Shown: positions 11,150 to 63,699 of the stretch, in pieces
How positions within the stretch are numbered: position 1 is the stretch's first letter
Layout of the letters: each line of letters starts with the position of its first letter
NCBI RefSeq assembly: GCF_030994125.1
Contig: NZ_CP099917.1
Span: 1,178,001-1,242,000, forward strand
From: Pseudoalteromonas xiamenensis
Lineage (GTDB): Bacteria > Pseudomonadota > Gammaproteobacteria > Enterobacterales > Alteromonadaceae
DNA length: 64,000 bases
Direction: 5' to 3'
Made by a program: the position numbers and the translations under genes
The notes under the pieces: model-generated
What the model saw: only the letters and a program-made list of their open reading frames with translations
Database searches by the model: none
What the model was told of the DNA's origin: nothing

Positions 11150-11228
11150 CCTGTTCAGGTGGTTCATTACTCCCCCTGAATATCTCGATTTTATTAACAA
11201 AGTGATTAAAAAACTGACGAATTTTCTC

Positions 11229-11250
11229 AAAGCGGTATAATACCGTTTTT
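11229..11250 (+). terminator. Hairpin with T-run after the histidine kinase
   Basis: AAAGCGGTA and TACCGTTTT pair across a three-base loop, with one mismatch, and are followed by T residues; it lies 80 bp after the kinase stop and before the pilus operon. Confidence 0.6.
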
Positions 11251-11264
11251 GAAGCCAATTCTTT

Positions 11265-11280
11265 TGGTTGTTCGCTTGCT
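11265..11280 (+). promoter_or_regulatory. Possible sigma-54 promoter for the chaperone-usher genes
   Basis: TGGTTGTTCGCTTGCT has the GG (11266-11267) and GC (11278-11279) of the -24/-12 elements at the required 12-bp distance, but the -24 box deviates from TGGCAC. It becomes more credible because the pilin downstream has a much better sigma-54 match. Confidence 0.4.
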
Positions 11281-11371
11281 AATGACGGACATGTTCTGCG
11301 CTTTTGATAGCGTTGAAGGTGCTTACCGTATTTAGCAAATGGTAAGTCTCGTTTTTGGAGTTGGAAGTCAA

Positions 11372-12067
11372 ATGCGTAAACTGTTTTTACTATTCGTGTG
11401 GTTATCTGCACCTGCAATTGCTTATCAAGTTCAACCAATGATCGTGGATCTTGCATCTCATGGTAAAAAGTCGTTAGTCACCTACAGACTGCAAAATCCG
11501 AGCGAAAGTACGCTCCCTATCGAAGTTGAAGTCTTTAAGCGTACCTTTGATGAAAACCAAAAAGAAGTATTGGTTAGTGCTGAAGAAGACTTCATTGTTT
11601 TGCCTCCACAAATTGAAGTGCCAGCCAACGGTTATCAAGTGTTTCGAGCTAAATATTTAGGGTCACCAGAGCTTAAGAAGACGGAATCTTACCGCATCGT
11701 GTTCAAACAGCTTCCTTTACCAAGTGAAAATGAACAATCTGGCGTGAAGATGGTTTATAACTTTGCGACACTGGTTTTTGTGAGCCCTGACGGCGTCCAA
11801 GCGCAGCTCACTCACACTCTGAATTGTGAAAAATTGGACGAATGTAAACTGACCATCCGCAATGATGGAGAACGAGTTCTCGATTTAGCTCAGTTTGAAT
11901 ATCGCTTTCATCAAGAAAATACCGTCATAAATTGGGCCGATTTTCAGGCCGTGACATCGGGCCGCTTTATCATGCCCACTCATTCGATGAGCGTTGACTT
12001 AAAAACCTTATTGAAAGATAAACCAACCAAAACGGTCACAATAGTCAATTTGTCCAATAAGAAGTAA
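11372..12067 (+). CDS. Periplasmic fimbrial chaperone (PapD/CsuC-like)
   Basis: From the ATG at 11372 (ribosome-binding site GGAAGTCAA), the 231-residue protein has a signal peptide ending at about AIAYQ and two immunoglobulin-like domains. Domain 1 contains the subunit-binding strand region FKRTFDENQ and the VPANGYQVFRAKYLG segment typical of pilus chaperones, followed by YRIVFKQLPLP. Domain 2 has a cysteine pair (LNCEKLDECKL). It would cap pilin subunits in the periplasm and deliver them to the usher encoded 10 bp downstream. A possible upstream in-frame ATG at 11339 lacks a binding site and signal peptide logic. Confidence 0.85.
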   Translation: MRKLFLLFVWLSAPAIAYQVQPMIVDLASHGKKSLVTYRLQNPSESTLPIEVEVFKRTFDENQKEVLVSAEEDFIVLPPQIEVPANGYQVFRAKYLGSPELKKTESYRIVFKQLPLPSENEQSGVKMVYNFATLVFVSPDGVQAQLTHTLNCEKLDECKLTIRNDGERVLDLAQFEYRFHQENTVINWADFQAVTSGRFIMPTHSMSVDLKTLLKDKPTKTVTIVNLSNKK

Positions 12068-12077
12068 TCATTTAACG

Positions 12078-49725: not shown

Positions 49726-50572
49726 TTAACTCTTCCCTCTCATAACCGCCCGACTCACTGTCGAATAATGCACGCCAAATTCCTTTGCGATTTCGCTCAT
49801 GGCATACTGCCCGTCTAAACACGCGTTTGCCATGCCCTGCTTTGGGTCGTTTTGGTACATTTGTTTAAAGTGGCTAAGTGGCAATGCACTCGCTCGCTTT
49901 GCTTTATTGGCACTTCGCTGAGGGTTAAATCCGCATCGTCTTGTTCTGTCTTTAAGTGCTGCTCTACAAACTCGCTGCTGCCTAAAAACACCTGATTTTT
50001 TAAGTTCTGCCAAATATCAACGCCGATGCCTTGTGCAACAAAGTCGCTGTAGCGCTTGATGGCGGTCTTTCGCGACTTGGCAAATAACAGCAGTAGCGCA
50101 TCGGTTGCCAACCAATCGGGAGATTTTCTAAGACCGATAGCCGCTTGGTAGCTGCTCCACGGCCACTCTATTGGCGAATCAACCATCCCTTTTCCCGCAC
50201 TGGATTAAGCACAATATAGCGGCATAACTCGAGCAAATAGCTGTCTTTATCGACCAAAATGCTTTTATAGCGCCCTTGAAACAGATGACCAACCCGTTGG
50301 TATTTACGATTAAACTGCTGGGTATAGACACCGTTCAGTTGCCGCATCCCTTTAGCGAGATTCGCATCAGGTGTTTCAACCAATAAATGGTAGTGATTGG
50401 TCATTAAACAGTAAGAATGTATCACCCAATTAAACCGCTCACAGACCGACATTAGCACCGCCAAAAAACGGGCAAAATCGTCTTCATCGCGATAGATAGT
50501 TTGACGCTCATTGCCTCGCGACGTGACATGATACAACGCCCCTGCTAACTGAAGTCGTAAAGGTCAGCTCAT
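49726..50572 (-). pseudogene. RAYT copy A, degraded
   Basis: Compared with the intact copy at 57216-58067, this copy has three lesions. The codon after MS is TGA instead of CGA (near 50566). A base is missing near 50185 (TTTTCCCGC for TTTTGCCCGC), separating the HUH half from MVDSPIEWPWSS. Another T is missing near 49902 (GCTTTGC for GCTTTTGC). All parts are recognisable, including TNHYHLLVE and the C-terminal HTH. The 3' end reads MRGKS rather than ARCKT, so the left terminal repeat is lost. The right repeat and the 5' hairpin remain at 50593-50638. Confidence 0.9.
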
Positions 50573-50592
50573 CACCAAGCCCCAAAAAAGAA

Positions 50593-50638
50593 AAAGGTTA
50601 ACTCACTTCAGTCAACCTTTCGTGCAAGACCTGACCCC
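50593..50638. repeat. 5' hairpin and outer repeat of RAYT copy A
   Basis: AAAGGTTAACT / AGTCAACCTTT (50593-50620) is followed by CGTGCAAGACCTGACCCC (50621-50638). The spacing is shorter than in the other copies because the ATTGCAC segment is missing. Confidence 0.85.
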
Positions 50639-50710
50639 CAGTGCATAATGCATAAGAAATCAGGACTAACATTATTTCCTTATCATGATGAACCAGAGAG
50701 CTCAGATATT

Positions 50711-50741
50711 ACTCTTGGACCAAGTATATTGACCCAAGAGT
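50711..50741 (-). terminator. Hairpin after the GlyGly-CTERM protein gene
   Basis: ACTCTTGG / CCAAGAGT (8 bp) flanks an inner CTTGG-type palindrome, 13 bp after the stop at 50754. Confidence 0.5.
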
Positions 50742-50753
50742 ACAAGCTGGTTA

Positions 50754-53700
50754 TTACAATGTTGGGTTGGGAGCAGTCTCGCTAAACCTCAACTTGCGGA
50801 TGAACCCTGCTAGCAATAGCAGAGACAGTAAGTAAACAGGCATACTTCCGCCACTTTTGTTCTTTGGTTCCGTGACCTCTGGCTCTTTATCTGTATTATC
50901 TTTGTTATCGTCAGCTTTTGTCGTGTCGACGTTAACGACAATATTGCTTGGCTCTGAATAACTCATGCCATCAAATACTCGATACTGAAAGTTTACCTTA
51001 TAAGTAGCATCATTTTCTGGGGTATAAGACATCAGCCCCGTATTACGATTTATCTCGACCACGCCTTTATCTGGTTGTGATACCAATTCGTAAATAAGCG
51101 GGTCTGAATCAGCATCCTGAGCTAAAAGCGGGACGTTAATCACTCCAGACTGGTTAACCTCGAATTCGACTGGCAGTGCCTGCGGCGTCGTATTCGTATG
51201 GTTTACCGTGATGACTTTCTCAATGTGTAGACCATGTTCATTACTTACATTCACGCTAAGCATTGCAGGCTCTAACGTTGAAGTCGATGGTGTATATGTA
51301 AATTCACCCGTTGCTGTATTACTGAAGACAAACTCACCTGAATCAGGTGCGCTAGTCACTCCGAACTGAAGAACCGTATTTTCGTCTATGCCTGATAATG
51401 ACAATGTGCCAATAAGCGGAGTACGCCAGTGGGCAGAAAGTGAACTAGATTCAATAATAAGTGGAGTTCCTTCAATATTAATAGAGATTAAGACGCTTTC
51501 GGTAGTTTTTCCCCCAACACTCATGGAAAGCTCAAACTGGTCTAGTCCGACTTCGCCTGTTGTGGGTGTATAGTTGAAATGACCCAGCGCTCTATCTGAG
51601 AAGGAGATATTGCCTTTGCTCGGTGCTTTAGAAACGTAAAAGCGATAGTTAAAAGCATCTTTTTCATCTAGTAAGGCAAAATTCACGGGTGTAAATTTGT
51701 TGGTATTAAACTCAGCTGCACTCAGCTGAAAAGGCAGCTCAGTACTTTCTGAAATTTTATATAATTCTCTTCCATTATCATGTCGTACAAGCCAATAAGT
51801 ATCCTGACCAATTATTTCAATATCTGCATGGGTTGCGGCCACATCAAGGCTTACCAGCTTACTATATTGTTGGCTAGCCAAATTAAAGGTACCCAGTTCT
51901 TTTTCACAGGTAATATGGAGTTGGCCGTCAAGGTGTTGCTCGATATCAATTAATTTTGACGATGTACATAAGGTCGTGATTTCTTGTTTGTTTCCTTGTG
52001 CAGAAATGGACTGCAAAGTGCCATTAGGCGTCGTCATGTAAAGCTTTTCTACCGCGTTATTGGTAAACGTGTGGAGTGATTTAAGATCGCCGAGGTCCAG
52101 TGATGAGTGGCTGTTTTTAACAAGATTATAGATTGTCGTTTGATTTTTATGTTTAAACACTAGCTCTTTAACGCCATCACCATCAAAGTCTATTTGTGCT
52201 GTAAATCCTGTCTCGTAGTTAGGCATATCAACCAGTGTGACGGTATACTTAACCGTGTCACTATTAAAGTCTTTGATTTCGAATGGTATTGTAATGTCAA
52301 GTATTAAGTGGTTATTTTGGCGAAGATACTCAGGGTTATCATCACCGTCAATATCGCCCAAAAACTGAAAATATCCAAGAACAGGTTTTGTAGTGTATGA
52401 CGAGCCATCCATATTCATTATTTTAGTTTTATAAATATATTCGTCATATGGTTCACCTCTGGTCTGATATACAATTTTATCAACAAGGTTGCTTCCAAAA
52501 GTACCAATAGAAACTCCTGCCAACTCTGACCGTTGCGTTGTACCTCTGCCCGCAATTTCTTTTGCCCATAATTCACTTTGCGTGATAGGAGAAATATTGC
52601 TTAATGTTACAATATCTTGGACTATAAACGCAGGGTCCGGAGTGCCCCAAGGGGAAGCGGCGGCTGTAATCTTTTTATTTACATCAATAATCCTTAATTC
52701 ACCATCTTGGTTGGCTAAATAAACATCACCATGGAATCCCAGTTCAGTTATTTCACCAAATAAAACTTCTTCGACGTGAAGTTTAGTCTTTTGCTCAATC
52801 TTTTCTTTTTTCTCATCACCATACAAGTCTAAATAGTTATAGATATGGTGATAGGTATTAGGTTGATAATCTCCACCTCCTTCTATGAAACTTATACCGA
52901 TAACCTCTTTTTCTCGAGTTAGGTAGTCATAGTATTCTAAATCTAAAGCGTAACGATCATAAGGGTAACCACGACCGCTAAGAACTTCCGCATTAAATTG
53001 ATATAAAGTGTTGTTGAACTTTGATGAACGACCATACTTTGAATAGCCAGGCTCCTGCTTACAACTTTCTAGAGAATTCCCTACAGGCCAAATAACACTG
53101 CCGTTTTTTACGTCGATAGTACAGCCCTCACTAACTACTTCATCTGTTCCATCATCGTTTATATCTTTAGTAAATAAATAGGTGCCTGTTACCGCAAGCG
53201 TACTAACTTGATTTATTTCATTATCTTGAATTCGGTAGATTTTACCGTCCCATGTCAGCATTTCATTGAACAGATGATTGGTAAACTTCCCAACAACAAA
53301 TTCATAGTGTGGTAAGTTGTAGTGCGCTTTGGTTTCTAGTGTATGCATATCGAGTGTATGCATACTGCTTTCATTTATCAGCATGATTTCGACGTCACCA
53401 TCGTTATCTATGTCTTTAAATTTAACGATCTCAGCGGTTACATTTGGGAGCGCTTTTACATATTTTCTAGCAGTTAAATTGAGAAGGTGTACGTTTTGTG
53501 TCTTACTTATAACAACAGCAAAGTGATTATCAGATCGCCTATCATAATAAATTTCGAAAGAATCTATTGATTCATTGTCGCTCTCGAGTTTTATTGAATC
53601 AGTCAGTGTTGTTTTTATACCTTCATTTTCAGAAGGTATATTTACAATATACAATCGTTGTTTGTCATTATTAATCATTGTAACGATGTCTTTTTTATTA

Positions 53701-53837
53701 TCATTATCAACATCGATGATTCTGATATTGCTCAAATCTCTAAAGCTTGAGCAATGCTTTATCTTCTCTACGTAAGCCTGCGATTGCTGGGTTGCTAATA
53801 GCAAGGTGAGAAGTGTTGACGTGATGAAAAATTTCAT
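50754..53837 (-). CDS. Large secreted FG-GAP/cadherin-like protein with GlyGly-CTERM
   Basis: The 1027-residue protein has a signal peptide (to QSQAYVE), an N-terminal region with FG-GAP/VCBS-like integrin beta-propeller repeats (blocks such as IIDVDNDNKKDIVTMIN, FKDIDNDGDVEIMLIN, DINDDGTDEVVSEG, GDIDGDDNPEYLRQN) and, from about residue 720, tandem Ig/cadherin-like repeats with GHFNYTPTTGEVG and ATGEFTYTPST. The C-terminus GGSMPVYLLSLLLLAGFIRK fits the GlyGly-CTERM sorting signal that rhombosortase cuts after export by type II secretion. It is calcium-rich in composition (many DxDxDG motifs). Probable surface adhesin or binding protein; ligand unknown. Start ATG 53837 after AGGAATAAC. Confidence 0.8.
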   Translation of the reverse strand: MKFFITSTLLTLLLATQQSQAYVEKIKHCSSFRDLSNIRIIDVDNDNKKDIVTMINNDKQRLYIVNIPSENEGIKTTLTDSIKLESDNESIDSFEIYYDRRSDNHFAVVISKTQNVHLLNLTARKYVKALPNVTAEIVKFKDIDNDGDVEIMLINESSMHTLDMHTLETKAHYNLPHYEFVVGKFTNHLFNEMLTWDGKIYRIQDNEINQVSTLAVTGTYLFTKDINDDGTDEVVSEGCTIDVKNGSVIWPVGNSLESCKQEPGYSKYGRSSKFNNTLYQFNAEVLSGRGYPYDRYALDLEYYDYLTREKEVIGISFIEGGGDYQPNTYHHIYNYLDLYGDEKKEKIEQKTKLHVEEVLFGEITELGFHGDVYLANQDGELRIIDVNKKITAAASPWGTPDPAFIVQDIVTLSNISPITQSELWAKEIAGRGTTQRSELAGVSIGTFGSNLVDKIVYQTRGEPYDEYIYKTKIMNMDGSSYTTKPVLGYFQFLGDIDGDDNPEYLRQNNHLILDITIPFEIKDFNSDTVKYTVTLVDMPNYETGFTAQIDFDGDGVKELVFKHKNQTTIYNLVKNSHSSLDLGDLKSLHTFTNNAVEKLYMTTPNGTLQSISAQGNKQEITTLCTSSKLIDIEQHLDGQLHITCEKELGTFNLASQQYSKLVSLDVAATHADIEIIGQDTYWLVRHDNGRELYKISESTELPFQLSAAEFNTNKFTPVNFALLDEKDAFNYRFYVSKAPSKGNISFSDRALGHFNYTPTTGEVGLDQFELSMSVGGKTTESVLISINIEGTPLIIESSSLSAHWRTPLIGTLSLSGIDENTVLQFGVTSAPDSGEFVFSNTATGEFTYTPSTSTLEPAMLSVNVSNEHGLHIEKVITVNHTNTTPQALPVEFEVNQSGVINVPLLAQDADSDPLIYELVSQPDKGVVEINRNTGLMSYTPENDATYKVNFQYRVFDGMSYSEPSNIVVNVDTTKADDNKDNTDKEPEVTEPKNKSGGSMPVYLLSLLLLAGFIRKLRFSETAPNPTL

Positions 53838-54132
53838 GTTATTCCTTTAAATTATTATAGCATCGAAGTACTTTGAGACTAGCGATTGGTGACAGGAGGT
53901 AAGTTAGCATAGTTTATTTTAATCTGTAACTGAATTGGGGAAGGTAACGTAGAAAGCGAATGTTGCCTTTTTAACTCCTCTTCAAAAATAAGTATGTTAT
54001 GACACTATGTTTGCTTGTTTCTAGCGTTGCTTTGCACCGCCAGCTCATACATTTTTGCAAATAAAAAAGTCCCCCGAGGGTGGCTTGGAAACGTGACATC
54101 ATGTAAAAACAGGGAGAAATGAACTTAGTCGA

Positions 54133-54245
54133 TTACTTATTTTCGACGAGTTTGCCTCTTCCAATTTCAAACTTTCTTGGCTTGAGTGCTTCTGGAATTT
54201 CGCGCTCAAGGTCAATGGTTAACAGGCCATTTTCAAAGGTCAAGA
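54133..54245 (-). pseudogene. ibpA: C-terminal remnant of an IbpA/Hsp20 small heat-shock protein gene
   Basis: Reading the minus strand from 54245 gives LTFENGLLTIDLEREIPEAL, then KPRKFEIGRGKLVENK and a TAA at 54133, which is the end of an IbpA-type alpha-crystallin protein (compare the [23 protein letters not shown] end of E. coli IbpA). The N-terminal two thirds are missing: upstream lies a 14-bp direct repeat and the left end of RAYT copy B. This is a truncated gene left at an element junction. Confidence 0.75.
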
Positions 54246-54273
54246 AAGATCTAGGGTCAAAGATCTAGGGTCA
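54246..54273. repeat. 14-bp direct repeat at the ibpA/RAYT B junction
   Basis: AAGATCTAGGGTCA occurs twice back to back (54246-54259 and 54260-54273), exactly where the ibpA remnant meets the left end of copy B. Confidence 0.8.
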
Positions 54274-55074
54274 GGTCTTGAATCGTGCAACCGCCCTGCT
54301 CACCGTCGAATAATGTACGCCAAATACCTTTGCAATGTCACTCATGGAGTATTACCCGTCTAAATACGCGTTTGCCATGCCCTGCTTTGGATCGTTTTGG
54401 TATGTTTGTTTAAAGTGGCTAAGTGGCAACGCACTCGCTCGCTTTTGCTTTTTCGGCACTTCACTGAAAGTTAAATCAGCATCGTCTTGTGCTGTTTTTA
54501 AGTTTTGTCAAATATCTATGCCGACGCCTTGTGCTACAAAGTCGCTGTAGCGCTTGATGGTGGTCTTTCTCGACTTGGCAAATAACAACAGTAGCGCATC
54601 GGTTGCCAACCAATCAGGAGATTTTCGAAGACCGATAGCCTCTTGATAGCTACTCCACGGCCACTCTACCGGTGAATTAACCATGCTTTTTGCCCGCACG
54701 GGATTAAGCACAATATAGCGGCATAACTCCAGCAAATAGCTGTCTTTATCGACCAAAATGCTTTTATAGCGCCCTTGAAACAGATGACCCACGCGCTGGT
54801 ATTTGCGATTAACTTGCTGGGTATAAACACCGTTTAGTTGCCGCATCCCTTTGGCCAGATTCGCGTCGGGTGTTTCGACGAATAAATGGTAGTGATTGGT
54901 CATCAAACAGTAAGAATGTATCACCCAATTAAACCGCTCACAGACTGACGTTAGCACTGCCAGAAAACGCGCAAAATCGTCTTTACTACGATAAATAGTT
55001 TGGCGTTCATTCCCTCGCGACGTGACATGATACAGTGCCCACGCAGATTGAAGTCTTAATGATCGGCTCATCAA
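54271..55074 (-). pseudogene. RAYT copy B transposase, degraded
   Basis: The 5' 188 codons are open and nearly identical to the intact copy (HUH motif TNHYHLFVE, LCRYIVLNPVRAKS). At the codon for Trp in GIDIW a TGA appears (near 54510), and directly after it about 48 bases (NQVFLGSSEFVEQHLK of the intact copy) are deleted between two short CTTAAAAA repeats. A further TAA replaces Gln in DGQYSMS near 54352. The intended stop lies in the left terminal repeat. Start ATG 55071, or TTG one codon earlier. Confidence 0.88.
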
Positions 55075-55090
55075 AAAGCCCTAAAAAGAA

Positions 55091-55148
55091 AAAGGTTAAC
55101 TAACTTTAGTCAACCTTTCGAACATTGCACAAAGCAAGACCTGACCCC
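55091..55148. repeat. 5' hairpin and right terminal repeat of copy B
   Basis: The hairpin AAAGGTTAACT/AGTCAACCTTT (55091-55118) is separated from the terminal GCACAAAGCAAGACCTGACC (55127-55146) by a short spacer, as in copy E. Confidence 0.8.
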
Positions 55149-55186
55149 AATGAGTTTCCATTGAGTTTAGGTTTTAGTAACTATAA

Positions 55187-55209
55187 AGTCAGGCAATCAC
55201 GACCTGACT
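55187..55209 (-). terminator. Hairpin after the 563-residue secreted protein gene
   Basis: AGTCAGG / CCTGACT (7 bp, 9-base loop) lies 14 bp past the stop codon and is followed by TTTAT on the minus strand. Its stem resembles the CCTGAC core of the surrounding repeats. Confidence 0.6.
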
Positions 55210-55222
55210 CTGTAAAGACGGC

Positions 55223-56914
55223 TTATTTTGAGCCGTCACAACTACCATTGTCGGTACCATCGGCTACATTGCCATTACAAATTTCATCATAGCCAAAATA
55301 ACGACGTGCTTCCATGTCTATGCAACTTGCATAGCCTTTATCGGTGTTGGTATCGTTCAAACATTGTAAGCCATAGCTCAAATCACAACGGAACAAACGT
55401 TCTTTACCATCACCTAAATCGCCTCTGATCCAAGTACCATCAATCGTCGCAGACTCGTTGCTAAACACCGTATTTGGATAAGATTTGGCGCGACATTCTA
55501 TCTTGTTCGGTGTGCGAGCAGGCATTCGTCCACCTAAGGGTGAATTACTCCAGTTAGTCCAATACGTATGACCTTCATGGTCACCACTGCCTGTTTCTCT
55601 GTCTCTTGATAACCACGGCGTCCAACCATAATGAAAACGAATTTCATAATCACCAGAGATTGGATTACTCGAGTAATTTTTCACTTTGCCCCCGTACATG
55701 GTATTCAACCCATACGCATCGCCAGTGTCACTCACATCTTTTCTATCGTGTTTACGGCGCATCTCAACATAAGCAGGTTCAACCCGAGTTAACCCTTCAA
55801 TCAAGTTACCACTTGATGAATGTTGCTCAAGCTTTTCCCAGTCATGATCGCCATTTCCCGCCGAACCTGGGTCATCTCTGTCTAACCAACCCGTATCGTA
55901 ACCGTGTTTGTGAATTTCAGCGATAGCCGTATCGACATGGTCACAATAATATTGCACTGTCCAATTGTCCCAGCATGATGTACCGCCATACTGATTACCA
56001 CTGGCGCTTGAGTCACAGATCAGGCCTTGGTACAAATCGCACGATAAGTCGGTGTTATCTTCATGATAATAAGCCTTCAAATGGTCAACTGCATACGCAT
56101 AGTTGCCTTTGCTGGTGTTGTAACAAGTGACGGCCGAAGGCTCTTTACACGCCAAACTCCCCGTGGTTGTGTGAATTGTAATGCCTTCGTTTTCAAATCG
56201 ACTATTCGGTGTTGATGAGATATCTAGCCAACCTGACCACAATTGAGAACGAATGCTGTCACTCGTACCTAGCTTCTTGAAATAGCTATCATATAAATAA
56301 TATTCATCATCCGATTGTACAAACTGATTACTACCACAGCCGTAGATCAATACATTGAGGATGTTATTCGATACATCACCATTGTAGTCATCATCCTGCC
56401 ATTGATTAAGCGTGATGCTGTGCGTTTGCCCATATCCTTGACTTTGGCATTGGTATTGCACCTTCCAGATCACCGGCTCCTGAAAGAGATTCGTCATTTC
56501 AATATAATAACCATCGTCAGAATCAGTATATTCATATAGACGATTAACATCATTATCGTTAAACGAAGAAGAACGGCCCATATTGCCATAAATTATCCGC
56601 TGTGGACTATTAGCATCACGTATACTTTTGCCCTTGGGCGCCTCAATGATCTGCGCAGCATTCATCCACCACTGAGAACCAATAGCTGCTGTTGGAAATC
56701 TCGCTTGCACATTGATAATTTTGATGGCGTCTTGGCTTTGCTTGTATGCAAATCTCAGCCACTTATCAGTCACCGAGTCTGATACATCGGTTTTCATCGC
56801 ATTGATAATATTTAAATGATAAATATTTTCATTGGCCACTGCCGATGACAGTGGAATAGCCAGTAACGTCGCAACGCCAATAGCGTGTTTGAGTACGCTT
56901 AAATGCCTGTTCAT
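55223..56914 (-). CDS. Large secreted cysteine-rich protein, family unknown
   Basis: The 563-residue protein begins with a signal peptide (to about SSAVANE) and contains about 15 cysteines, mostly in the second half, suggesting disulphide-stabilised domains. Aromatic and acidic residues are abundant, with blocks such as GWLDISSTPNSRFENEG, DNWTVQYYCDHVDTAIAEIH and SNSPLGGRMPARTPNKIECR. I do not recognise a family; there is no cell-wall anchor, membrane helix or lipobox. It lies between two RAYT elements with its own terminator. ATG 56914 follows GGAAAGAAA. About 200 bp upstream show no gene. Confidence 0.7.
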   Translation of the reverse strand: MNRHLSVLKHAIGVATLLAIPLSSAVANENIYHLNIINAMKTDVSDSVTDKWLRFAYKQSQDAIKIINVQARFPTAAIGSQWWMNAAQIIEAPKGKSIRDANSPQRIIYGNMGRSSSFNDNDVNRLYEYTDSDDGYYIEMTNLFQEPVIWKVQYQCQSQGYGQTHSITLNQWQDDDYNGDVSNNILNVLIYGCGSNQFVQSDDEYYLYDSYFKKLGTSDSIRSQLWSGWLDISSTPNSRFENEGITIHTTTGSLACKEPSAVTCYNTSKGNYAYAVDHLKAYYHEDNTDLSCDLYQGLICDSSASGNQYGGTSCWDNWTVQYYCDHVDTAIAEIHKHGYDTGWLDRDDPGSAGNGDHDWEKLEQHSSSGNLIEGLTRVEPAYVEMRRKHDRKDVSDTGDAYGLNTMYGGKVKNYSSNPISGDYEIRFHYGWTPWLSRDRETGSGDHEGHTYWTNWSNSPLGGRMPARTPNKIECRAKSYPNTVFSNESATIDGTWIRGDLGDGKERLFRCDLSYGLQCLNDTNTDKGYASCIDMEARRYFGYDEICNGNVADGTDNGSCDGSK

Positions 56915-57127
56915 TTTCTTTCCTTAACGGTTAAGGTCAATGCAAATATCATTTAATTGCTTCACACATCTGCTCAGATAAAGGTACTCCCTACGGGTCA
57001 TAAACGTCATTACTGCTCGCGGTAACATGGCATATCCTTGATCTGATCGAGGCAATTAAAGGCCAGCAATGTGGATCAAATATGAAAATGAAAAAGATTA
57101 ATCAAATTAGGTGCATAACTAAAACTG

Positions 57128-57234
57128 TTGGGGTCAAAACTAGAACAGTTGGGGTCAGGTCTTGTAACGTGCAATACCAGTGGGGGTCAAGTGGCGGGGT
57201 CAGGGGGTCACGGGGTCAGGTCTTGCATCGTGCA
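57128..57234. repeat. Cluster of GGGGTCAGG repeats before RAYT copy C
   Basis: In about 110 bp there are a GGGGTCA at 57130-57136, a complete GGGGTCAGGTCTTG at 57151-57164, GGGGGTCA and GGGGTCAGGGGGTCA at 57182-57210, and the true left end of copy C at 57212-57234. The partial GTTGGGGTCA repeat at 57127 and 57148 points to tandem duplication of solo ends. Confidence 0.85.
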
Positions 57235-58067
57235 ACCGCCCTGCTCACCGTCGAATAATGTACGCCAAATTCCTTTGCAATGTCACTCATTGAGTATTGC
57301 CCGTCTAAATAGGCGTTTGCCATGCCCTGCTTTGGGTCGTTTTGGTACGTTTGTTTGTAGTGGCTAAGTGGCAATGCACTCGCTCGCTTTTGCTTTTTAG
57401 GCACTTCGCTGAGTGTTAAATCAGCATCGTCTTGTGCTGTTTTTAAGTGCTGCTCTACAAACTCGCTACTACCTAAAAACACCTGATTTTTTAAGTTCTG
57501 CCAAATATCTACGCCGATGCCTTGCACTACAAAGTCGCTGTAGCGCTTGATGGCGGTCTTTCTCGACTTGGCAAATAACAACAGTAGCGCATCGGTTGCC
57601 AACCAATCGGGAGATTTTCTAAGACCGATGGTCTCTTGATAGCTGCTCCACGGCCACTCTATCGGCGAATCAACCATCCCTTTTGCCCGCACTGGATTGA
57701 GCACAATATAGCGGCATAACTCCAGCAAATAGCTGTCTTTATCGACCAAAATGCTTTTATAGCGCCCTTGAAATAGATGACCCACACGCTGGTATTTACG
57801 ATTAAACTGCTGGGTATAGACACCGTTTAGTTGCCGCATCCCTTTGGCCAGATTCGCGTCGGGCGTTTCGACTAACAAATGATAGTGATTGGTCATCAAA
57901 CAGTAAGAATGTATCACCCAATTAAACCGCTCACAGACTGACGTTAGCACTGCCAGAAAACGCGCAAAATCGTCTTTACTACGATAAATAGTTTGGCGTT
58001 CATTCCCTCGCGACGTGACATGATACAGTGCCCCTGCAAACTGAAGTCGTAAAGGTCGACTCATCAT
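57216..58067 (-). CDS. REP-associated tyrosine transposase (RAYT), intact
   Basis: The 283-residue protein has the Y1_Tnp/IS200-like fold: N-terminal SRPLRLQFAGALYHVTSRG, the HUH metal motif His61-Tyr62-His63 in TNHYHLLVE, NGVYTQQFNRKYQRVGHLFQ and the likely catalytic tyrosine in LCRYIVLNPVRA (Tyr120; Tyr113 is an alternative). A C-terminal extension ends in a helix-turn-helix (MSDIAKEFGVHYSTVSRAVA), also seen in RAYTs of the DnaA-HTH type. It is the only copy of five without a visible lesion, so it may supply activity to the others. RAYTs bind and nick REP-like hairpins. No second gene (TnpB) is present. Confidence 0.9.
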   Translation of the reverse strand: MMSRPLRLQFAGALYHVTSRGNERQTIYRSKDDFARFLAVLTSVCERFNWVIHSYCLMTNHYHLLVETPDANLAKGMRQLNGVYTQQFNRKYQRVGHLFQGRYKSILVDKDSYLLELCRYIVLNPVRAKGMVDSPIEWPWSSYQETIGLRKSPDWLATDALLLLFAKSRKTAIKRYSDFVVQGIGVDIWQNLKNQVFLGSSEFVEQHLKTAQDDADLTLSEVPKKQKRASALPLSHYKQTYQNDPKQGMANAYLDGQYSMSDIAKEFGVHYSTVSRAVARCKT

Positions 58068-58084
58068 AAAGCCCTAAAAAAGAA

Positions 58085-58112
58085 AAAGGTTAACTCACTA
58101 TAGTCAACCTTT
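58085..58112 (-). terminator. Terminator-like hairpin upstream of the intact RAYT
   Basis: Read on the minus strand, AAAGGTTGACT / AGTTAACCTTT (11 bp, one mismatch, 6-base loop) is followed by a run TTTTTCTTTTTT just before the ATGATG start. This looks like a terminator that blocks read-through into the transposase; IS200 has a hairpin of the same purpose. Confidence 0.65.
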
Positions 58113-58151
58113 CGAGAAATGCACGATGCAAGACCTGACCCCGTTGATTTC

Positions 58152-58392
58152 TTAGTTGCCGCATCCCTTTAGCCAGATTCGCATCGGGCGTTTCGACTAA
58201 CAAGTGGTAATGATTGATCATCAAACAGTAAGAATGTATCACCCAATTAAACCGCTCACAGACTGACGTAAGCACCGCCAAAAAACGGGCAAAATCGTCT
58301 TCATCGCGATAGATAGTTTGACGCTCATTGCCACGCGATGTGACATGATACAACGCCCCTGCAAACTGAAGTCGTAAAGGTCGGCTCATCAT
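58152..58392 (-). pseudogene. RAYT copy D, N-terminal fragment
   Basis: Only the first 80 codons remain (through GMRQL); the HUH site survives as INHYHLLVE, but the tyrosine and the C-terminal half are absent. Reading continues into a terminal-repeat sequence of copy C (NQRGQVLHRAFLERLTIVS), so the open frame ends at 58090. The fragment is in the same orientation as copy C and shares the flanking sequence GTTGATTT on both sides, as if a tandem duplication had been trimmed. Confidence 0.85.
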
Positions 58393-58409
58393 AAAGCCCT
58401 AAAAAAGAA

Positions 58410-58467
58410 AAAGGTTAACTCACTATAGTCAACCTTTCGAGAAATGCACGATACAAGACCTGACCCC
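58410..58467. repeat. 5' hairpin and right end of RAYT copy D
   Basis: Hairpin AAAGGTTAACT/AGTCAACCTTT at 58410-58437 and terminal repeat at 58445-58467, identical to copy C except for one base (GATACAAG for GATGCAAG). Confidence 0.88.
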
Positions 58468-58498
58468 GTTGATTTTAGTGATTTTAGCGTTGATTTTA

Positions 58499-58536
58499 GT
58501 GATATTGAGGCGAACCATTTCATTAGACCTGACCCC
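58499..58536. repeat. 38-bp perfect repeat, first copy
   Basis: The sequence starting GTGATATTGAGGCGAACC and ending AGACCTGACCCC is identical to 63605-63642. At the second place it lies directly upstream of an IS110-type start, so this may be the stub of another IS110 end joined to a REP core. Confidence 0.8.
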
Positions 58537-58584
58537 TGTGATTGTGACCCCAGTGATTCTTAGTGGACCACGATGGTACCTAAG

Positions 58585-60054
58585 TCAGCCCGTGGCTTTA
58601 CGCACAGAAAACGTAAATTCAGTGCCTTTACCTAATTCACTCTCAACTTTAATTTCTGACTTTAATAGACGGATAAGACGAGAAGTAATCGCCAGTCCTA
58701 ACCCTGCATGGGTCTTTTTACAACCTTGACTGTTACTGGCTTTATAGCGCGCTTCAAAAATATAAGGCAGCTCTTTGCTACTAATACCGAGCCCGGTATC
58801 ACGCACTGCTAACGTATATTGTTGATTGCGCTCTTGGACCTCTATCGTGATATTACCGCCTGCAGGCGTATGCCGAATAGCGTTATCAATTAAGTTAGCC
58901 AACACTCGCTCAAGTTTGGCGATATCAGAGTAAACTTGAGCATCGAAAGTTTCGGGCTGTAAAGTTAAAGTAATATTGGCCTTAGCCGTTTTGAGCGCAA
59001 ATTTAGCAAAAATGTCGTAAATCAATTCACCTAAATTAAATACTTCAAGCTGTACATTGGCATGGCCCGACTCTAGATGCGCAAGCTCAAATATTTGATC
59101 AATCAAACTCTTTAATTGGGTGCAGTTTTTAAGTGCTACTTGTAAGTAATGGGTTTGTTGCTCAGGTTTGGCATGTTGTTTCTCAATCAGCTCTAAATAC
59201 CCTTGTAATGAGGCGAGCGGCGTACGCAGATCATGAGAAAGGTGCGCTAATAACTGTCTACGTTGCGTGTCGAGTTCAGTGAGCTGCGCCATTTGTTGAT
59301 TAATGGTCACTAGCATTTGATTGACACTATTGCCGAGTTGGTGCACTTCGTTATTCGTGTTTGACCACTGTGGCATAGCCAATTCGGTTAGATCAAACTG
59401 CGCCTTTTCTGCTTTATGAATAAAATCCCCTAGTTGTTTTAAGGGCGAGGTAATATAGCGAAATAGCAACACCGCCACAAAAAGTAAAATAACCACCAAG
59501 ATCAATAAACCCGCCGAATGCTGAAACAAGTGATCTGAGCTGCTGATCTGCGTAAAAATAGAATCGTAGGCAGACGAGCCGATAATTACGTATAAATAAC
59601 CTTGTAATGTCTCATGATTATAAACTGGCGCAACTGAGAAGATTTTTTGTTGATCAAAACTGCGTGGATCATCGCCAAAAATAGGCAAGTTGTGTGGTTC
59701 TTCAATAAGCTGTAGCAGAGGTCTTAAATCGATACTTTGCTTTTTCACATCGCCGGGGTTGGCTGAGTATGCAACTAATTTACCGCTTGGATTGACAAAG
59801 TAAAACTCAAAGGACGGGCCTAGCACCATCAAAGTATGAAATAGGCTTTCAAGGGCCTTATAATCGTAAACGCCTTGCTTAAGTAACGGGTTGTCATGGG
59901 CTAGGTGTTCAGCCAGGCCTAAATGCAGCTTTTGCTCAGCTTGAGCGCGAGAGACTTCAGACACACATTGCGTCCAAGTCACAAACGAAATAAGAATAAT
60001 AAAAAGCACCGTTGAAATAGTCAGGCTTAGGCGCTGATAAAGAGATTGGATCAT
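58585..60054 (-). CDS. Sensor histidine kinase (EnvZ/BaeS type)
   Basis: The 489-residue kinase has a membrane helix at about 10-30, a periplasmic PAS-like region, a second helix near 175-200, a HAMP domain, HisKA with H-box LAHLSHDLRTPLASLQGYLE and an ATPase domain with N-box NLIDNAIRH, G-boxes DTGLGI and GLGLAITSRL. It overlaps the response-regulator stop by 4 bp (ATGA) and is the last gene of a four-gene operon with two spondin-domain proteins. It likely senses an envelope or extracellular signal linked to those proteins. Confidence 0.92.
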   Translation of the reverse strand: MIQSLYQRLSLTISTVLFIILISFVTWTQCVSEVSRAQAEQKLHLGLAEHLAHDNPLLKQGVYDYKALESLFHTLMVLGPSFEFYFVNPSGKLVAYSANPGDVKKQSIDLRPLLQLIEEPHNLPIFGDDPRSFDQQKIFSVAPVYNHETLQGYLYVIIGSSAYDSIFTQISSSDHLFQHSAGLLILVVILLFVAVLLFRYITSPLKQLGDFIHKAEKAQFDLTELAMPQWSNTNNEVHQLGNSVNQMLVTINQQMAQLTELDTQRRQLLAHLSHDLRTPLASLQGYLELIEKQHAKPEQQTHYLQVALKNCTQLKSLIDQIFELAHLESGHANVQLEVFNLGELIYDIFAKFALKTAKANITLTLQPETFDAQVYSDIAKLERVLANLIDNAIRHTPAGGNITIEVQERNQQYTLAVRDTGLGISSKELPYIFEARYKASNSQGCKKTHAGLGLAITSRLIRLLKSEIKVESELGKGTEFTFSVRKATG

Positions 60055-60785
60055 AATGATGCCTGTTGCACTGATTTAGCGTTAAGTTTGTAGCCCACAC
60101 CCCATACTGTTTCTATGATGTCTTGCTGGCACAAGTGGCCGAGCTTACTGCGCAAGCGATTGATGTGCGAGTTAACGGTATGCTCGTAACCTGAGTGGTC
60201 ATAACCCCACACAGATTCAAGTAATTGTGCGCGCGAAAAGACTTGATTGGGGTGTCTTGCAAAAAAGTAGATTAAATCGAATTCGGTGGCTGTGAGGTCG
60301 ATGATTTGATTGTCAATGAAGACTTCATGGCTGCTTGTATCAATCTGCAATGCGCCCAACATCAGGGCGGACGGCTGTGCCGTGACAGTATCGCTTGACT
60401 GTTTCTGCATGTTAAGCAACTTAATATGGCGGATCTGAGCTTTAATCCTCGCTTGGAACTCTCGATAGCTAAAAGGTTTGCAAATATAGTCATCGGCACC
60501 AATCTCTAGACCAATCACTCTGTCTATTTCACTACTTTTAGAGGTTAGTAATACCACACTTACCTGGGGGAATAGCGATTTGATTTCTCGACAAACACTG
60601 AGCCCATCTATACCCGGGAGCATAATATCGAGCAGCACGATGTCATAATAGCCTTGCATTAATTTTGCCATGGCGCTTTCTCCATCGATCACGTGCTCGA
60701 CATCCAGTGATAACTCTTTAAGGTGTACCAGAACTAACTCTGCAATATCGAGATCGTCCTCAACGACCAATACTTTATGTTGCAT
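60051..60785 (-). CDS. OmpR-family response regulator
   Basis: The 244-residue protein has an intact receiver domain (VVEDDLDIAEL, phospho-acceptor Asp in IVLLDIMLPGIDGLS, Thr-Ser in VVLLTSK, Lys in YICKPFS) and a C-terminal winged helix (LTATEFDLIYFFARHPNQVF, and HINRLRSKLG before WGVGYKLN). Unlike the regulator at 9171, nothing is broken. It sits between the spondin genes and its kinase. Binding sites were not located. Confidence 0.93.
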   Translation of the reverse strand: MQHKVLVVEDDLDIAELVLVHLKELSLDVEHVIDGESAMAKLMQGYYDIVLLDIMLPGIDGLSVCREIKSLFPQVSVVLLTSKSSEIDRVIGLEIGADDYICKPFSYREFQARIKAQIRHIKLLNMQKQSSDTVTAQPSALMLGALQIDTSSHEVFIDNQIIDLTATEFDLIYFFARHPNQVFSRAQLLESVWGYDHSGYEHTVNSHINRLRSKLGHLCQQDIIETVWGVGYKLNAKSVQQASL

Positions 60786-60870
60786 ATTTCAACCCCTCAC
60801 AAGTAACCCCTCATCGAGGCGCATTTACTTTGTAATGCCCATCACACACATTGCAATGGGCATGTAGGGC

Positions 60871-61581
60871 TTATTTCATTCTTGTTATGGTGACCAACAT
60901 GAGTGGGTTATCGAATTTATGCGTGCTATCTAAAATAGAGCTAGAGAGCCCGTCATCATTACCGACAACGCCTGGATGCATGGCAACCTTATCTATCGCC
61001 TCACGGGTACTATTGAAGCCCTCACCACCATCGGCTGGACCAGGAATAGTGCCTTGAGCCTCAGTATTTGCTTCGGTACCGGCATCATAGGCATAGGTAC
61101 GCATAGCAACACTGTCGCCTTCTGCAAGGTTTGATACGTCCATAGCATTAAGACCGGTAAAACCATCATTTGTATTCACCATCATGGTAATTAACGAGAG
61201 TTTGTAGCCAACAAGGCTTTCGGTAGTGAGCATTAATTCTTGGCTAGCCCCCGGTGCAAGCGGAGCATCCGCTGAGCTTGACATCATGACTGCTTCTAAC
61301 CCAAGTAGACCCGAATTATCCCCGCCTTCCGCTAGTTTTTCTAACTCGACACTTGCCGCTTCGCCTAGTTTCCAAAATTGCCCTTCTTTATGTAGCGCGA
61401 TGCCGATTGGAGAAAGTGGCTGTCCATAGGTGAGGTTAACCGCAGTGACTTTTAACCTTATTTGCTCTGTCGCCGGAGGTGTTGGTGGTGGTGTTTCTGA
61501 CATCATGTCATTGTTGTCACTGCCACAACCTGCCAGTAATAGACCTGCAAATACAGGCACACATAGTTTTAACGCTTTCAT
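60871..61581 (-). CDS. Spondin-domain lipoprotein
   Basis: The 236-residue protein carries a lipoprotein signal (LLLAGC, Cys19) and a proline/threonine tether, then a spondin-type domain starting RLKVTAVNLTYGQPLSPIGI. It shares the blocks LxxLAEGGDxSGL, MMVNTNDGFTGL, YDAGTEAN and VTITRMK with its neighbour at 61592. Spondin domains in bacterial secreted proteins have unknown roles; the paired lipid-anchored and soluble forms with a two-component system suggest sensing or scavenging outside the cell. 10 bp separate it from the other spondin gene. Confidence 0.85.
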   Translation of the reverse strand: MKALKLCVPVFAGLLLAGCGSDNNDMMSETPPPTPPATEQIRLKVTAVNLTYGQPLSPIGIALHKEGQFWKLGEAASVELEKLAEGGDNSGLLGLEAVMMSSSADAPLAPGASQELMLTTESLVGYKLSLITMMVNTNDGFTGLNAMDVSNLAEGDSVAMRTYAYDAGTEANTEAQGTIPGPADGGEGFNSTREAIDKVAMHPGVVGNDDGLSSSILDSTHKFDNPLMLVTITRMK

Positions 61582-61591
61582 GGTAAGCCCC

Positions 61592-62296
61592 TTACTTTAC
61601 TGTTACCGTCACTTTTGCCACAGGGTTTAACCAACGGTGTACTGTGTTGTGTAAATCGCTTTTACCACCTGTTGCTTCGTCATCACCTAAGTTGCCGCGG
61701 TGAATGTGTACCATCATATTTGCTTCTTCACTAGTTACGCCACTACCTTGAGTACCCGGTGCCATACCCGGAGAAGCAGGGATGCCTAATGAGCCTGGTG
61801 CACCAGACCCCTCAACAATCAGCTCGTTATTAGCTTCAGTACCCGCATCGTAAGCGTTGAGATAGATATGATACGTGCCCGCTTGCGTGGGAATTGGCCA
61901 AGCATCTAAACCAACAAAACCATCGTTGGTTGGCAGCATCATTGCGACAAGTGACAATGTTGAGTTAATTTCTGAGCTTTCAACCATCGCCATAGTAGAT
62001 GCAGTCGGCGCCAACAAGCCTTCTGCTGGGTTAGCTGCAGTGCTGGCATTGATGCTTGAAAGCTCTGCCGCAAGACCTGAAATATCACCGCCCTCGGCCA
62101 TAGCTTGTAATTGCAAAGTTGCTTTGCTACCCACTTGATAGAGATGGCTATCACCGCTGTGTGCAGCGACGAGTAAAGGGGTAAAGTAAATGCCCTGCGT
62201 AAGGTTGGTAATTTTGACTTCAACGCTTGCTGCCATGACTTGGCTGCTTGCCAAAAAAGAAAGTCCTGTGATGAGTGCACTTGTTGCTTTATTCAT
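61592..62296 (-). CDS. Secreted spondin-domain protein
   Basis: From ATG 62296 (a preceding CTTAAAAGAGCAAGAC includes AGAGCAAG) the 234-residue protein has a signal peptide (cut near QVMAASV) and one spondin domain: KITNLTQGIYFTPLLVAAHS, LQAMAEGGDISGLAAEL, MMLPTNDGFVGLDA, YLNAYDAGTEANNE and VHRWLNPVAKVTVTVK. A longer frame upstream lacks a signal peptide start. It is first in the operon spondin-spondin lipoprotein-regulator-kinase, so the surface proteins and their probable sensor are co-expressed. Confidence 0.87.
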   Translation of the reverse strand: MNKATSALITGLSFLASSQVMAASVEVKITNLTQGIYFTPLLVAAHSGDSHLYQVGSKATLQLQAMAEGGDISGLAAELSSINASTAANPAEGLLAPTASTMAMVESSEINSTLSLVAMMLPTNDGFVGLDAWPIPTQAGTYHIYLNAYDAGTEANNELIVEGSGAPGSLGIPASPGMAPGTQGSGVTSEEANMMVHIHRGNLGDDEATGGKSDLHNTVHRWLNPVAKVTVTVK

Positions 62297-62488
62297 GTCT
62301 TGCTCTTTTAAGTTTGTTAAACACAAATCAAGTGTGCAAGACAGTTATCGCAAAAGGGTGGCTAAATATTCACAAATCTATCACAAGAGTATTTTAATTT
62401 TATCTCAAGCTTAGTAGAGCATTTAAAACAAGGCGTAGTTCGCAATGAACCACGCTTTTTGAAAGTTAATGAGGGCTAATGGATTGGC

Positions 62489-63365
62489 TCACCCTCTCGA
62501 TTTTATAGTGGCTACGTGTGAATTCATTTTGCACCGTGCAACCGCCCTGCTCACCGTCGAATAATGCACGCCAAATTCCTGCGCGATTTCGCTCATGGAA
62601 TATTGCCCGTCTAAATACGCTTTTGCCATACCCTGCTTTGGGTCGTTTTGGTACGTTTGTTTATAGTGGCTAAGTGGCAATGCACTCGCTCGCTTTTGCT
62701 TTTTCGGTACTTCGCTGAGTGTTAAATCAGCCTCGGCTTGTGCTGTTTTTAAGTGCAGCTCTACAAACTCGCTACTACCTAAAAACACCTGATTTTCTAA
62801 GTTCTGCCAAATATCAACGCCAAGGCCTTGTGCCACAAAGTCGCTGTAGTGCTTGATGGCGGTCTTTCGCGACTTGGCAAATAACAGCAGTAGCGCATCG
62901 GTTGCCAACCAATCGGGTGACTTTCGAAGACCGATAGCGTCTTGATAGCTGCTCCACGGCCACTCTACTGGCGAATCAACCATCCCTTTTGCCCGCACTG
63001 GATTAAGCACAATATAGCGGCATAACTCGAGCAAATAGCTGTCTTTATCGACCAAAATGCTTTTATAGCGCCCTTGAAATAGATGACCCACACGCTGGTA
63101 CTTACGATTAAACTGCTGGGTATAGACACCGTTTAGTTGCCGCATCCCTTTGGCCAGATTCGCGTCGGGCGTTTCGACGAATAAATGATAGTGATTGGTC
63201 GTTAAACAATGCGAATAGCTCACCCAGTTAAACCGCTCGCAGACGGATGTGAGCACTGCCTGAAAACGCACAAAATCGTCTTTACTGCGATAAATAGTTT
63301 GGCGTTCATTCCCTCGCGACGTGACACAGTGCCCCCGCTGATTGAAGTCGTAATGGTCGGCCCAT
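62489..63365 (-). pseudogene. RAYT copy E, 5' frameshifted
   Basis: The first codons (MGRPLRLQSAGAL, ATG at 63365) run into a 5-bp deletion in the ALYHVT region near 63330, after which the frame is shifted. The remaining 260 codons from about 63271 are open and include the HUH site (TTNHYHLFVE), the LCRYIVLNPVRA tyrosine and the C-terminal HTH. The 3' end differs: ARCKM continues for 11 more residues because the left terminal repeat is lost (no GGGGTCAGGTC). Without another start this copy should be inactive. Confidence 0.88.
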
Positions 63366-63384
63366 CAAAAGGCCCTAAAAAGAA

Positions 63385-63442
63385 AAAGGTTAACTAACTT
63401 TAGTCAACCTTTCGAACATTGCACAAAGCAAGACCTGACCCC
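63385..63442. repeat. 5' hairpin and right terminal repeat of copy E
   Basis: Hairpin AAAGGTTAACT/AGTCAACCTTT at 63385-63412; GCACAAAGCAAGACCTGACC begins at 63421 and the repeat ends at 63442. Sequence and spacing match copy B. Confidence 0.85.
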
Positions 63443-63479
63443 ATTGGTCCCGTTTGATGACCCCATTGGTCCCGTTTGA
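63436..63479. repeat. 22-bp tandem duplication at the IS110/RAYT junction
   Basis: A unit beginning TGACCCCATTGGTCCCGT occurs twice without gap (63436-63457, 63458-63479) between the right end of copy E and the IS110 fragment. Confidence 0.85.
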
Positions 63480-63561
63480 CTTGCTGCGCGTGTTCATCCC
63501 ATCCAATGACATGAAAGCTAGTCTTGCCTAAATCGATACCAAGAGTTTTTATATGAGTCAT
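63480..63561 (-). pseudogene. IS110-family transposase, N-terminal fragment
   Basis: ATG 63561 opens MTHIKTLGIDLGKTSFHVIG, then WDEHAQQ, which is the DEDD N-terminal motif of IS110/IS1111 transposases (LGIDLGKxxFHxxG). Homology ends at about 63480. The frame runs on through the 22-bp duplication and the RAYT end to a TAA at 63400, giving a 53-residue chimera that has no function I can assign. About 30 codons out of roughly 330 remain. Confidence 0.8.
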
Positions 63562-63604: not shown

Positions 63605-63642
63605 GTGATATTGAGGCGAACCATTTCATTAGACCTGACCCC
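63605..63642. repeat. 38-bp perfect repeat, second copy
   Basis: Identical to 58499-58536. It lies 44 bp upstream of the IS110 fragment and ends in AGACCTGACCCC. Another solo CAAGACCTGACCCC follows at 63663-63676. Confidence 0.8.
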
Positions 63643-63699
63643 AAACACCTCTTTGGTTATTACAAGACCTGACCCCATTGGTTATTAGATTATTGATTA

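What the first reader, a model, noticed from the sequence alone, without database searches (positions are those of the whole stretch)
49726..63442. Family of five RAYT elements with one intact master copy and graded decay
Five recognisable copies (49726-50572, 54271-55074, 57216-58067, 58152-58392, 62489-63365), all on the minus strand, lie within 14 kb. Only the third has an open gene. The others carry distinct lesions: a nonsense codon plus two 1-bp deletions (A), nonsense codons plus a 48-bp deletion between short repeats (B), truncation (D), and a 5-bp deletion (E). RAYTs are usually single-copy in a genome and act on small repeats; a local multi-copy family with full-length gene copies is less usual and suggests the gene itself moves or duplicates.
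Basis: partly seen in the sequence, partly recalled or inferred. Interest (0 to 1): 0.75.

Follow-up and report, generated by a model that had tools for sequence, protein, structure and literature searches.

The report
Local transposase cluster with stuttering ends
A marine bacterium carries five neighbouring copies of a little-studied transposase gene, one of them intact, and the ends of such elements often repeat together with about nine bases of neighbouring DNA, which hints at where the enzyme cuts.

Summary
The five copies are real: the only ones found in this Pseudoalteromonas genome, on one strand within 14 kb, only the third open. The element is a known kind, a TIRtron/TIRYT (subclass 2.1 TnpA-REP), with 25-bp perfect inverted repeats (TIRs) containing GGGGTCAG and six short TIR palindromes elsewhere in the genome. 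"RAYT" is right at superfamily level. "One master, graded decay" is too simple: C and E diverged under purifying selection (dN/dS 0.14), A and E lost their 3' tips, and D is a partial tandem duplicate of C's 5' part.

The new point concerns the ends. In 43 of 130 TIR ends (36 of 75 loci from many genera) the tip is tandemly repeated together with flanking DNA; three controls gave 2 of 479, 14 of 6,500 and 0 of 164. The flank part is nearly constant (about 9 nt) while the inner part varies. Flank conservation stops at the same place, as do two homology breaks beside a palindrome. I infer a nick about 9 nt outside the tip, then extension and religation. This is untested; 87 of 130 ends show no such unit, and no precise empty site for a full-length copy was found.

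The parts
49726..50638 (-). Copy A: TIRYT gene remnant (early stop, two 1-bp deletions); 5' TIR tip at 50632-50638, 3' TIR missing
54246..54273 (+). End unit at copy B's 3' tip: AAGATCTA-GGGTCA-AAGATCTA-GGGTCA
   Evidence: sequence
54268..55148 (-). Copy B: TIRYT gene with a 48-bp deletion and two stop codons; both TIRs present
57151..57173 (+). Extra TIR copy outside copy C's 3' end
57212..58142 (-). Copy C: intact TIRtron; gene 57216-58067 (283 aa); perfect 25-bp TIR arms 57210-57234 and 58120-58144
58143..58150 (-). Flank block of copy C's 5' tip (AAATCAAC read on the gene strand), the same 8 nt as beside copy D's tip
58152..58467 (-). Copy D: 5' part only (316 bp), a partial tandem duplicate of copy C's 5' part
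58525..58559 (-). Isolated TIR tip with an approximate end unit (TGACCCC + TGTGATTG, TGACCCC + AGTGATTC)
58585..62326 (-). Block between copies D and E: sensor kinase, response regulator, two further genes (one with a Spondin_N domain); 83% identical block in other surroundings in G084, G045, G009
62489..63442 (-). Copy E: TIRYT gene with a 5-bp deletion; 5' TIR tip at 63436-63442, 3' tip lost
63436..63479 (-). End unit at copy E's 5' tip: TGACCCC + ATTGGTCCCGTTTGA, twice (flank part 15 nt)
   Evidence: sequence
63631..63676 (-). Two further TIR tips (63631 and 63665)

Best explanation
The locus is a local family of TIRtrons: a Y1 (HUH-tyrosine) transposase gene between GGGGTCAG-type inverted repeats (this identification about 0.95). 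SHOWN: five same-strand copies, one open; short TIR palindromes elsewhere; and, across relatives, tandem repetition of the TIR tip together with about 9 nt of adjoining DNA. INFERRED mechanism (about 0.45): the enzyme nicks single-stranded DNA about 9 nt outside the tip (8 nt plus the G or A before GGGTCA), as TnpA-REP and IS200/IS605 enzymes cut outside the structure they recognise. It holds the 5' end; the freed 3' end is extended through the flank block and into the element for a variable length, most often just GGGGTCA, and is then rejoined to the held 5' end. One round gives X-tip-X-tip; longer extension gives a partial copy beside the full one, such as D beside C. A cut at the same point joined elsewhere would explain why unrelated DNA begins exactly there. 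Local copies then diverge, recombine with each other and decay.
For: Family. End units in 43 of 130 ends, 36 of 75 loci, 30 of 67 loci outside Pseudoalteromonas; controls 2 of 479, 14 of 6,500 and 0 of 164. Flank part mean 9.1 nt, SD 1.7 over 42 ends (one value of 25 left out), 8-11 nt in 30 of 43; tip part 5-8 nt in 25 of 43, longer in the rest. Flank composition is skewed at -9 to -1 and near background beyond -10; the purine run at -9 to -7 recurs more weakly in named loci (mean KL 0.165, shuffled maximum 0.063). Homology breaks at -9 on both sides of a palindrome on the second replicon. Same-strand partial copies within 150 bp keep the near tip: 6 of 7 upstream, 7 of 8 downstream. TnpA-REP enzymes cut 5' or 3' of REP and rejoin strands in vitro (PMC8266576 passages).
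Against: 87 of 130 ends show no exact unit. Copy E's unit has a 15-nt flank part, and the flank part ranges from 6 to 13 nt apart from one of 25; in the first, unconstrained test 3 of 46 had a flank part below 6. Paralogues share the block unevenly: G067 shares 9 nt in three copies, B and E do not, and within-genome pairs exceed cross-genome pairs at -1 to -6 but not at -7 to -9. The unit's first bases show no fixed motif. The cut strand is unknown; there is no biochemistry and no precise empty site for a full copy.
Confidence: 0.5

Rival explanations
1. The end units are replication slippage or unequal recombination at TIR hairpins and short repeats, without action of the enzyme; the five gene copies are an old segmental duplication that decayed in place.
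For: Slippage needs no special enzyme; units recur as multiple repeats; copies are old (C-E dS 0.28) and D is a mosaic, so recombination between copies does occur.
Against: 0 of 164 bases of other perfect hairpins in the same loci show such units; the outer edge is nearly constant while the inner edge varies; a purine-rich flank block ends at the same place.
Confidence: 0.25
2. The flank block is a target preference: the element inserts beside RRRNNAATR-like host DNA, and the block is native host sequence. The end units come from some later process.
For: The block follows a consensus rather than one sequence; copies B and E, with the same inner TIR, have different blocks.
Against: At the palindrome on the second replicon, homology to host DNA stops outside the block on both sides (two junctions of one element only); three G067 copies at different places share all 9 nt.
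Confidence: 0.17
3. Full-length copies transpose as conventional insertion sequences, and the 14-kb cluster reflects repeated independent insertions into a hotspot.
For: Complete TIRs on B and C; relatives lack copies beside the orthologous kinase block.
Against: No gene copy found outside 14 kb; all five on one strand; hardly any relative in phage, plasmid or viral-contig collections; no precise junction found.
Confidence: 0.08

Closest known systems
TIRtron / TIRYT (PMC3733652), equated with TnpA-REP subclass 2.1 (PMC6006769)
   Same: Y1 transposase with C-terminal helix-turn-helix, flanking inverted repeats with the GGGGWSAS motif, and moderate families of dispersed TIRs, singly, as dimers or in clusters (passages and sections read).
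   Different: Here five gene copies lie side by side, and the ends carry tandem units with a nearly constant flank length. I did not see this in the passages read; figures and supplements of those papers were not seen.
TnpA-REP / RAYT with GTAG REPs (PMC8266576; structure 4ER8)
   Same: HUH-tyrosine fold, single-strand chemistry by homology, cleavage 5' or 3' of the recognised structure (passages).
   Different: No GTAG REP identified; recognition element is a GGGGTCAG TIR; extra C-terminal domain; NCBI's RAYT model narrowly missed (75.1 of 80 bits).
Tandem REP clusters (PMC3733652)
   Different: There the flank segments are described as of variable length; here about 9 nt, and at TIRs rather than REPs.
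IS200/IS605 elements (IS608, ISDra2)
   Same: Fold matches after 4ER8; cut sites lie outside the recognised hairpin and are chosen by guide sequences (PMC8266576 passage).
   Different: Inverted repeats instead of subterminal hairpins; a guide sequence was looked for only roughly and not established.

Membership tests
TIRYT / TnpA-REP subclass 2.1 | Y1 transposase core with HUH and Y-x3-N-P motifs | tested here: met
   Y1_Tnp 57.9 bits; H61, H63, Y120, N124, P125 invariant in 25 aligned relatives; best fold match 4ER8
TIRYT / TnpA-REP subclass 2.1 | C-terminal helix-turn-helix (HTH_23, HTH_28 or Bac_DnaA_C) | tested here: met
   HTH_28 and HTH_23 match at E about 1e-4, but slightly below Pfam's cut-offs (22.5 of 25; 22 of 24.6)
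TIRYT / TnpA-REP subclass 2.1 | Flanking inverted repeats with GGGGWSAS | tested here: met
   GGGGTCAG in perfect 25-bp arms of copy C; tips found at 134 of 160 possible ends in 80 named loci, 130 of them used
TIRYT / TnpA-REP subclass 2.1 | No GTAG REP beside the gene | not tested
   No dedicated REP search was run
TIRYT / TnpA-REP subclass 2.1 | Low copy number in the genome | tested here: not met
   Five copies, one open. The paper states this as a description of class 2, not as a defining rule
TIRYT / TnpA-REP subclass 2.1 | Single-strand cleavage and joining at the TIR | not testable with these tools
   Needs purified protein
REP-associated tyrosine transposase (NCBIfam NF047646) | Score at or above NCBI's cut-off | tested here: not met
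   75.1 bits against 80
IS200/IS605 insertion sequence | Score at or above NCBI's IS200/IS605 transposase cut-off | tested here: not met
   21.4 bits against 55

The most novel reading that the evidence does not exclude
TIRYT enzymes cut single-stranded DNA at a nearly fixed point about 9 nt outside their TIRs and drive a nick-extend-religate cycle that copies the element's end, with that block, again and again. The ends would be self-amplifying and able to join new DNA one end at a time. This would explain local partial copies, dispersed TIR palindromes, and broken host genes that start exactly at the 9-nt edge.
Probability: 0.35. Interest if true: 0.75.

Novelty: new variant of a known kind. 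Interest (0 to 1): 0.58.

Why it matters
How RAYT-class enzymes spread DNA in cells is described as poorly understood (PMC8266576 abstract, in the listing), and for TIRYTs I saw no biochemistry in the papers searched. The genomes appear to record a repeated act at a nearly fixed position at the ends of these elements in many bacteria. That predicts one cut region and one reaction product, both testable with a published in vitro assay, and would give annotators an outer edge for these elements.

Tried and rejected
Empty sites. Orthologous kinase block in G084, G045 and G009: no TIRYT match and no TIR tip beside it in the stretches scanned (L152-L154; one lone GGGGTCAG about 9 kb from the block in L153), but other neighbours, so no clean empty site. 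G019 palindromes against its relatives (41 genomes searched, G019 included): the island did not align. The IS-like fragment beside E: outside this genome only a 64-bp match in G035, so no intact copy to place E's junction.

Guide pairing between purine run and TIR: composition at -7 shifts with TIR subtype, but I think host G+C may confound this (not measured), so nothing was concluded. A CT or AG dinucleotide at the boundary: no single fixed motif. Likeness of left and right flank blocks: 149 of 440 matches, 128.6 expected by shuffling, shuffled maximum 162; inconclusive.

A first control that joined a host flank to another end's tip scored 868 of 2,600 and 2,006 of 6,500, about as high as the data. 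It is not a valid null, because the flank already holds the first unit and every tip begins alike; I replaced it by swapping only the distal host (14 of 6,500). The first version of the test gave 46 of 130 against 6 of 431 host windows and 1 of 2,600 shuffles. The script also holds an unused loop.

Vehicles: 0 of 50,697 phage records (E up to 1e-20), 1 of 72,556 plasmid records (48% identity, E up to 1e-40), 2 distant loci in viral contigs.

Rows dropped: of 160 possible ends in 80 named loci, 26 had no recognised tip, 2 were duplicates (L085), 2 lay too near a contig end. A sequence search of the PDB found nothing at 1e-3. G056's three matches lie at or near contig ends and may be assembly copies.

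They are rewritten here.

Full report
OBSERVATION. The five copies A-E are present at the stated places, on the minus strand. A DNA search of the genome that holds the window (4.6 Mb, two contigs) lists only these five. Copy C is open (283 codons) and bounded by perfect 25-bp inverted repeats. In addition A and E lack their 3' TIR tips, A has a 12-bp deletion next to its 5' TIR, and D is a mosaic of C-like and A-like sequence. C and E differ by dS 0.28 with dN/dS 0.14 over 249 codons: both lines were under selection for most of the time since they split, so the lesions are probably late.

WHAT IT IS. The protein has the Y1_Tnp domain (57.9 bits, cut-off 23) and falls just short of NCBI's RAYT model (75.1 bits, cut-off 80). 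Its predicted fold (mean pLDDT 82, pTM 0.66) matches best 4ER8, the REP-associated tyrosine transposase, then ISDra2 and IS608 transposases. The HUH histidines and the Y-x3-N-P motif are invariant in 25 aligned sequences. The GGGGTCAG inverted repeats fit a TIRtron: PMC3733652 (passages) names such genes TIRYT and gives the motif GGGGWSAS; PMC6006769 (outline and abstract, sections 20 and 31, passages) says subclass 2.1 probably corresponds to them.

DISTRIBUTION. Of 99 genomes of the genus, 17 hold a match of at least 58% identity, this genome and a fragment in G013 included (my count from the rows); 44 of 99 match at E up to 1e-20 when more distant relatives count. Named relatives are mostly gammaproteobacteria (389 encoding stretches, best 80 kept; the genus name Pseudoalteromonas comes from these records). 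GGGGTCAGGTCT occurs 17 times in this genome, 10 in the cluster, against 0 for the pattern read backwards. The 7 others mark six palindromes of about 33-50 bp that look like two element ends brought together. GGGTCAGGTCTT occurs 103 times in 16 other genomes against 2 for the control, often in small clusters (the 16 were chosen because they hold a relative or a palindrome). With exact arms, palindromes were found in 5 of 108 genomes. In 12 of 80 named loci a second, mostly partial, copy lies in the fetched stretch.

END UNITS. At many tips the order is X-GGGGTCA-X-GGGGTCAGGTCTTG, where X is flank particular to the locus. With exact repeats, at least 6 flank and 5 tip bases, and offsets of 8-60, 43 of 130 ends in 36 of 75 loci qualify; 30 of 67 loci outside Pseudoalteromonas do. 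The same test centred 100-250 nt out in the host gives 2 of 479; with distal host swapped between ends, 14 of 6,500; at other perfect hairpins in the same 80 loci, 0 of 164. The flank part averages 9.1 nt (SD 1.7 over 42 ends, one value of 25 left out); the tip part is 5-8 nt in 25 of 43 and longer in the rest. One array in G033 shows a nearly constant outer edge with several inner lengths (L178 209-271).

THE SAME EDGE BY OTHER MEANS. (1) In 126 distinct flanks from 17 Pseudoalteromonas genomes, composition is skewed at -9 to -1, roughly RRRNNAATR (numbered outward from GGGTCA), and near background from -10 outward; some of these tips belong to one array and are not independent. In 130 ends of named loci, eight of these loci from Pseudoalteromonas, the purine run at -9 to -7 recurs more weakly (mean KL 0.165, shuffled maximum 0.063). 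(2) On the second replicon a 49-bp palindrome separates the C-terminal part of an HI0933-family (yhiN-like, name recalled) gene from a duplicated segment. Homology to G035 and G049 (91%) stops at CGTATTT; then follow GGAATTTT and GGGGTCA. G035's gene is a 395-codon ORF; G049's was not checked for intactness. On the other side the 98.5% identical second copy of the segment begins 8 nt beyond CCCC. Both breaks fall at -9, give or take chance matches of a base or two. (3) Partial copies beside a full copy keep the near tip: of same-strand fragments within 150 bp, in loci with both tips found, 6 of 7 upstream ones begin at the left tip and 7 of 8 downstream ones end at the right tip (exceptions L126 and L082; L126 and L146 give two downstream fragments each; some are TIR-length only). 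D beside C, with the shared block AAATCAAC, is the same arrangement with a 316-bp inner part.

MECHANISM. The simplest reading is a nick about 9 nt outside the tip, extension of the 3' end through flank block and tip, and rejoining to the held 5' end. TnpA-REP enzymes cut 5' or 3' of the structure and join strands in vitro (PMC8266576, passages), so the chemistry is plausible. The nick is inferred; the strand is unknown. Against it: 87 of 130 ends show no exact unit; E's unit has a 15-nt flank part; the flank part ranges from 6 to 13 nt, with one of 25; paralogues share X unevenly, and within-genome pairs exceed cross-genome pairs at -1 to -6 but not at -7 to -9.

SURROUNDINGS. The kinase block 58585-62326 lies between copies D and E. 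In G084, G045 and G009 an 83% identical block has other neighbours and no TIR tip beside it. The locus is rearranged relative to them; which side moved is not known.

NOVELTY. The element kind is known. In seven paper searches (PubMed Central open licences only) and the passages read I saw no report of end units with a near-constant flank at TIRYTs. The nearest statement is that large REP clusters repeat in tandem with flanking segments of variable length (PMC3733652). Passages of PMC8049555 added nothing on this. Bertels et al. 2017 on domesticated transposases, recalled as relevant to copy number, was not held and not read. I rate it a new variant rather than a new member because of the end units and the local gene cluster.

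Noticed in passing
63439-63561; 63605-63642; 58499-58536: A 41-codon frame starting MTHIKTLGIDLGKTSFHVIG looks like the start of an IS110-type transposase (recalled; no Pfam match). A 38-bp stretch ending in a TIR tip is identical at 58499 and 63605, and 64 bp of it match G035 at 97% about 1 kb from that genome's TIRYT.
   Followed up: partly
L172, L173, L174 (G092:C5:145658, G066:C92:45335, G020:C3:419940): Nearly identical palindromes of 55-56 bp in three genomes of the genus; G066 and G020 also share about 6-7 nt on each side and then diverge.
   Followed up: partly
L037:2736-3148 (beyond the window's right end): A stretch upstream of the glycine-cleavage genes recurs at many places in G084, G045 and G009; nature unknown.
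   Followed up: no
L163:5166-5321 (G019:C8): A stretch of about 150 bp recurs in several genomes of the genus and in two of other families; nature unknown.
   Followed up: no
L236:6583-8642 and 10974-13033 (second replicon): A 2,060-bp direct duplication at 98.5% identity covers the first parts of two adjacent kinase-TPR genes whose later parts differ; a TIR palindrome lies at the start of the second copy.
   Followed up: partly
58585-62326: Sensor kinase, regulator and two further genes form a block that stands in another gene neighbourhood in three relatives.
   Followed up: partly
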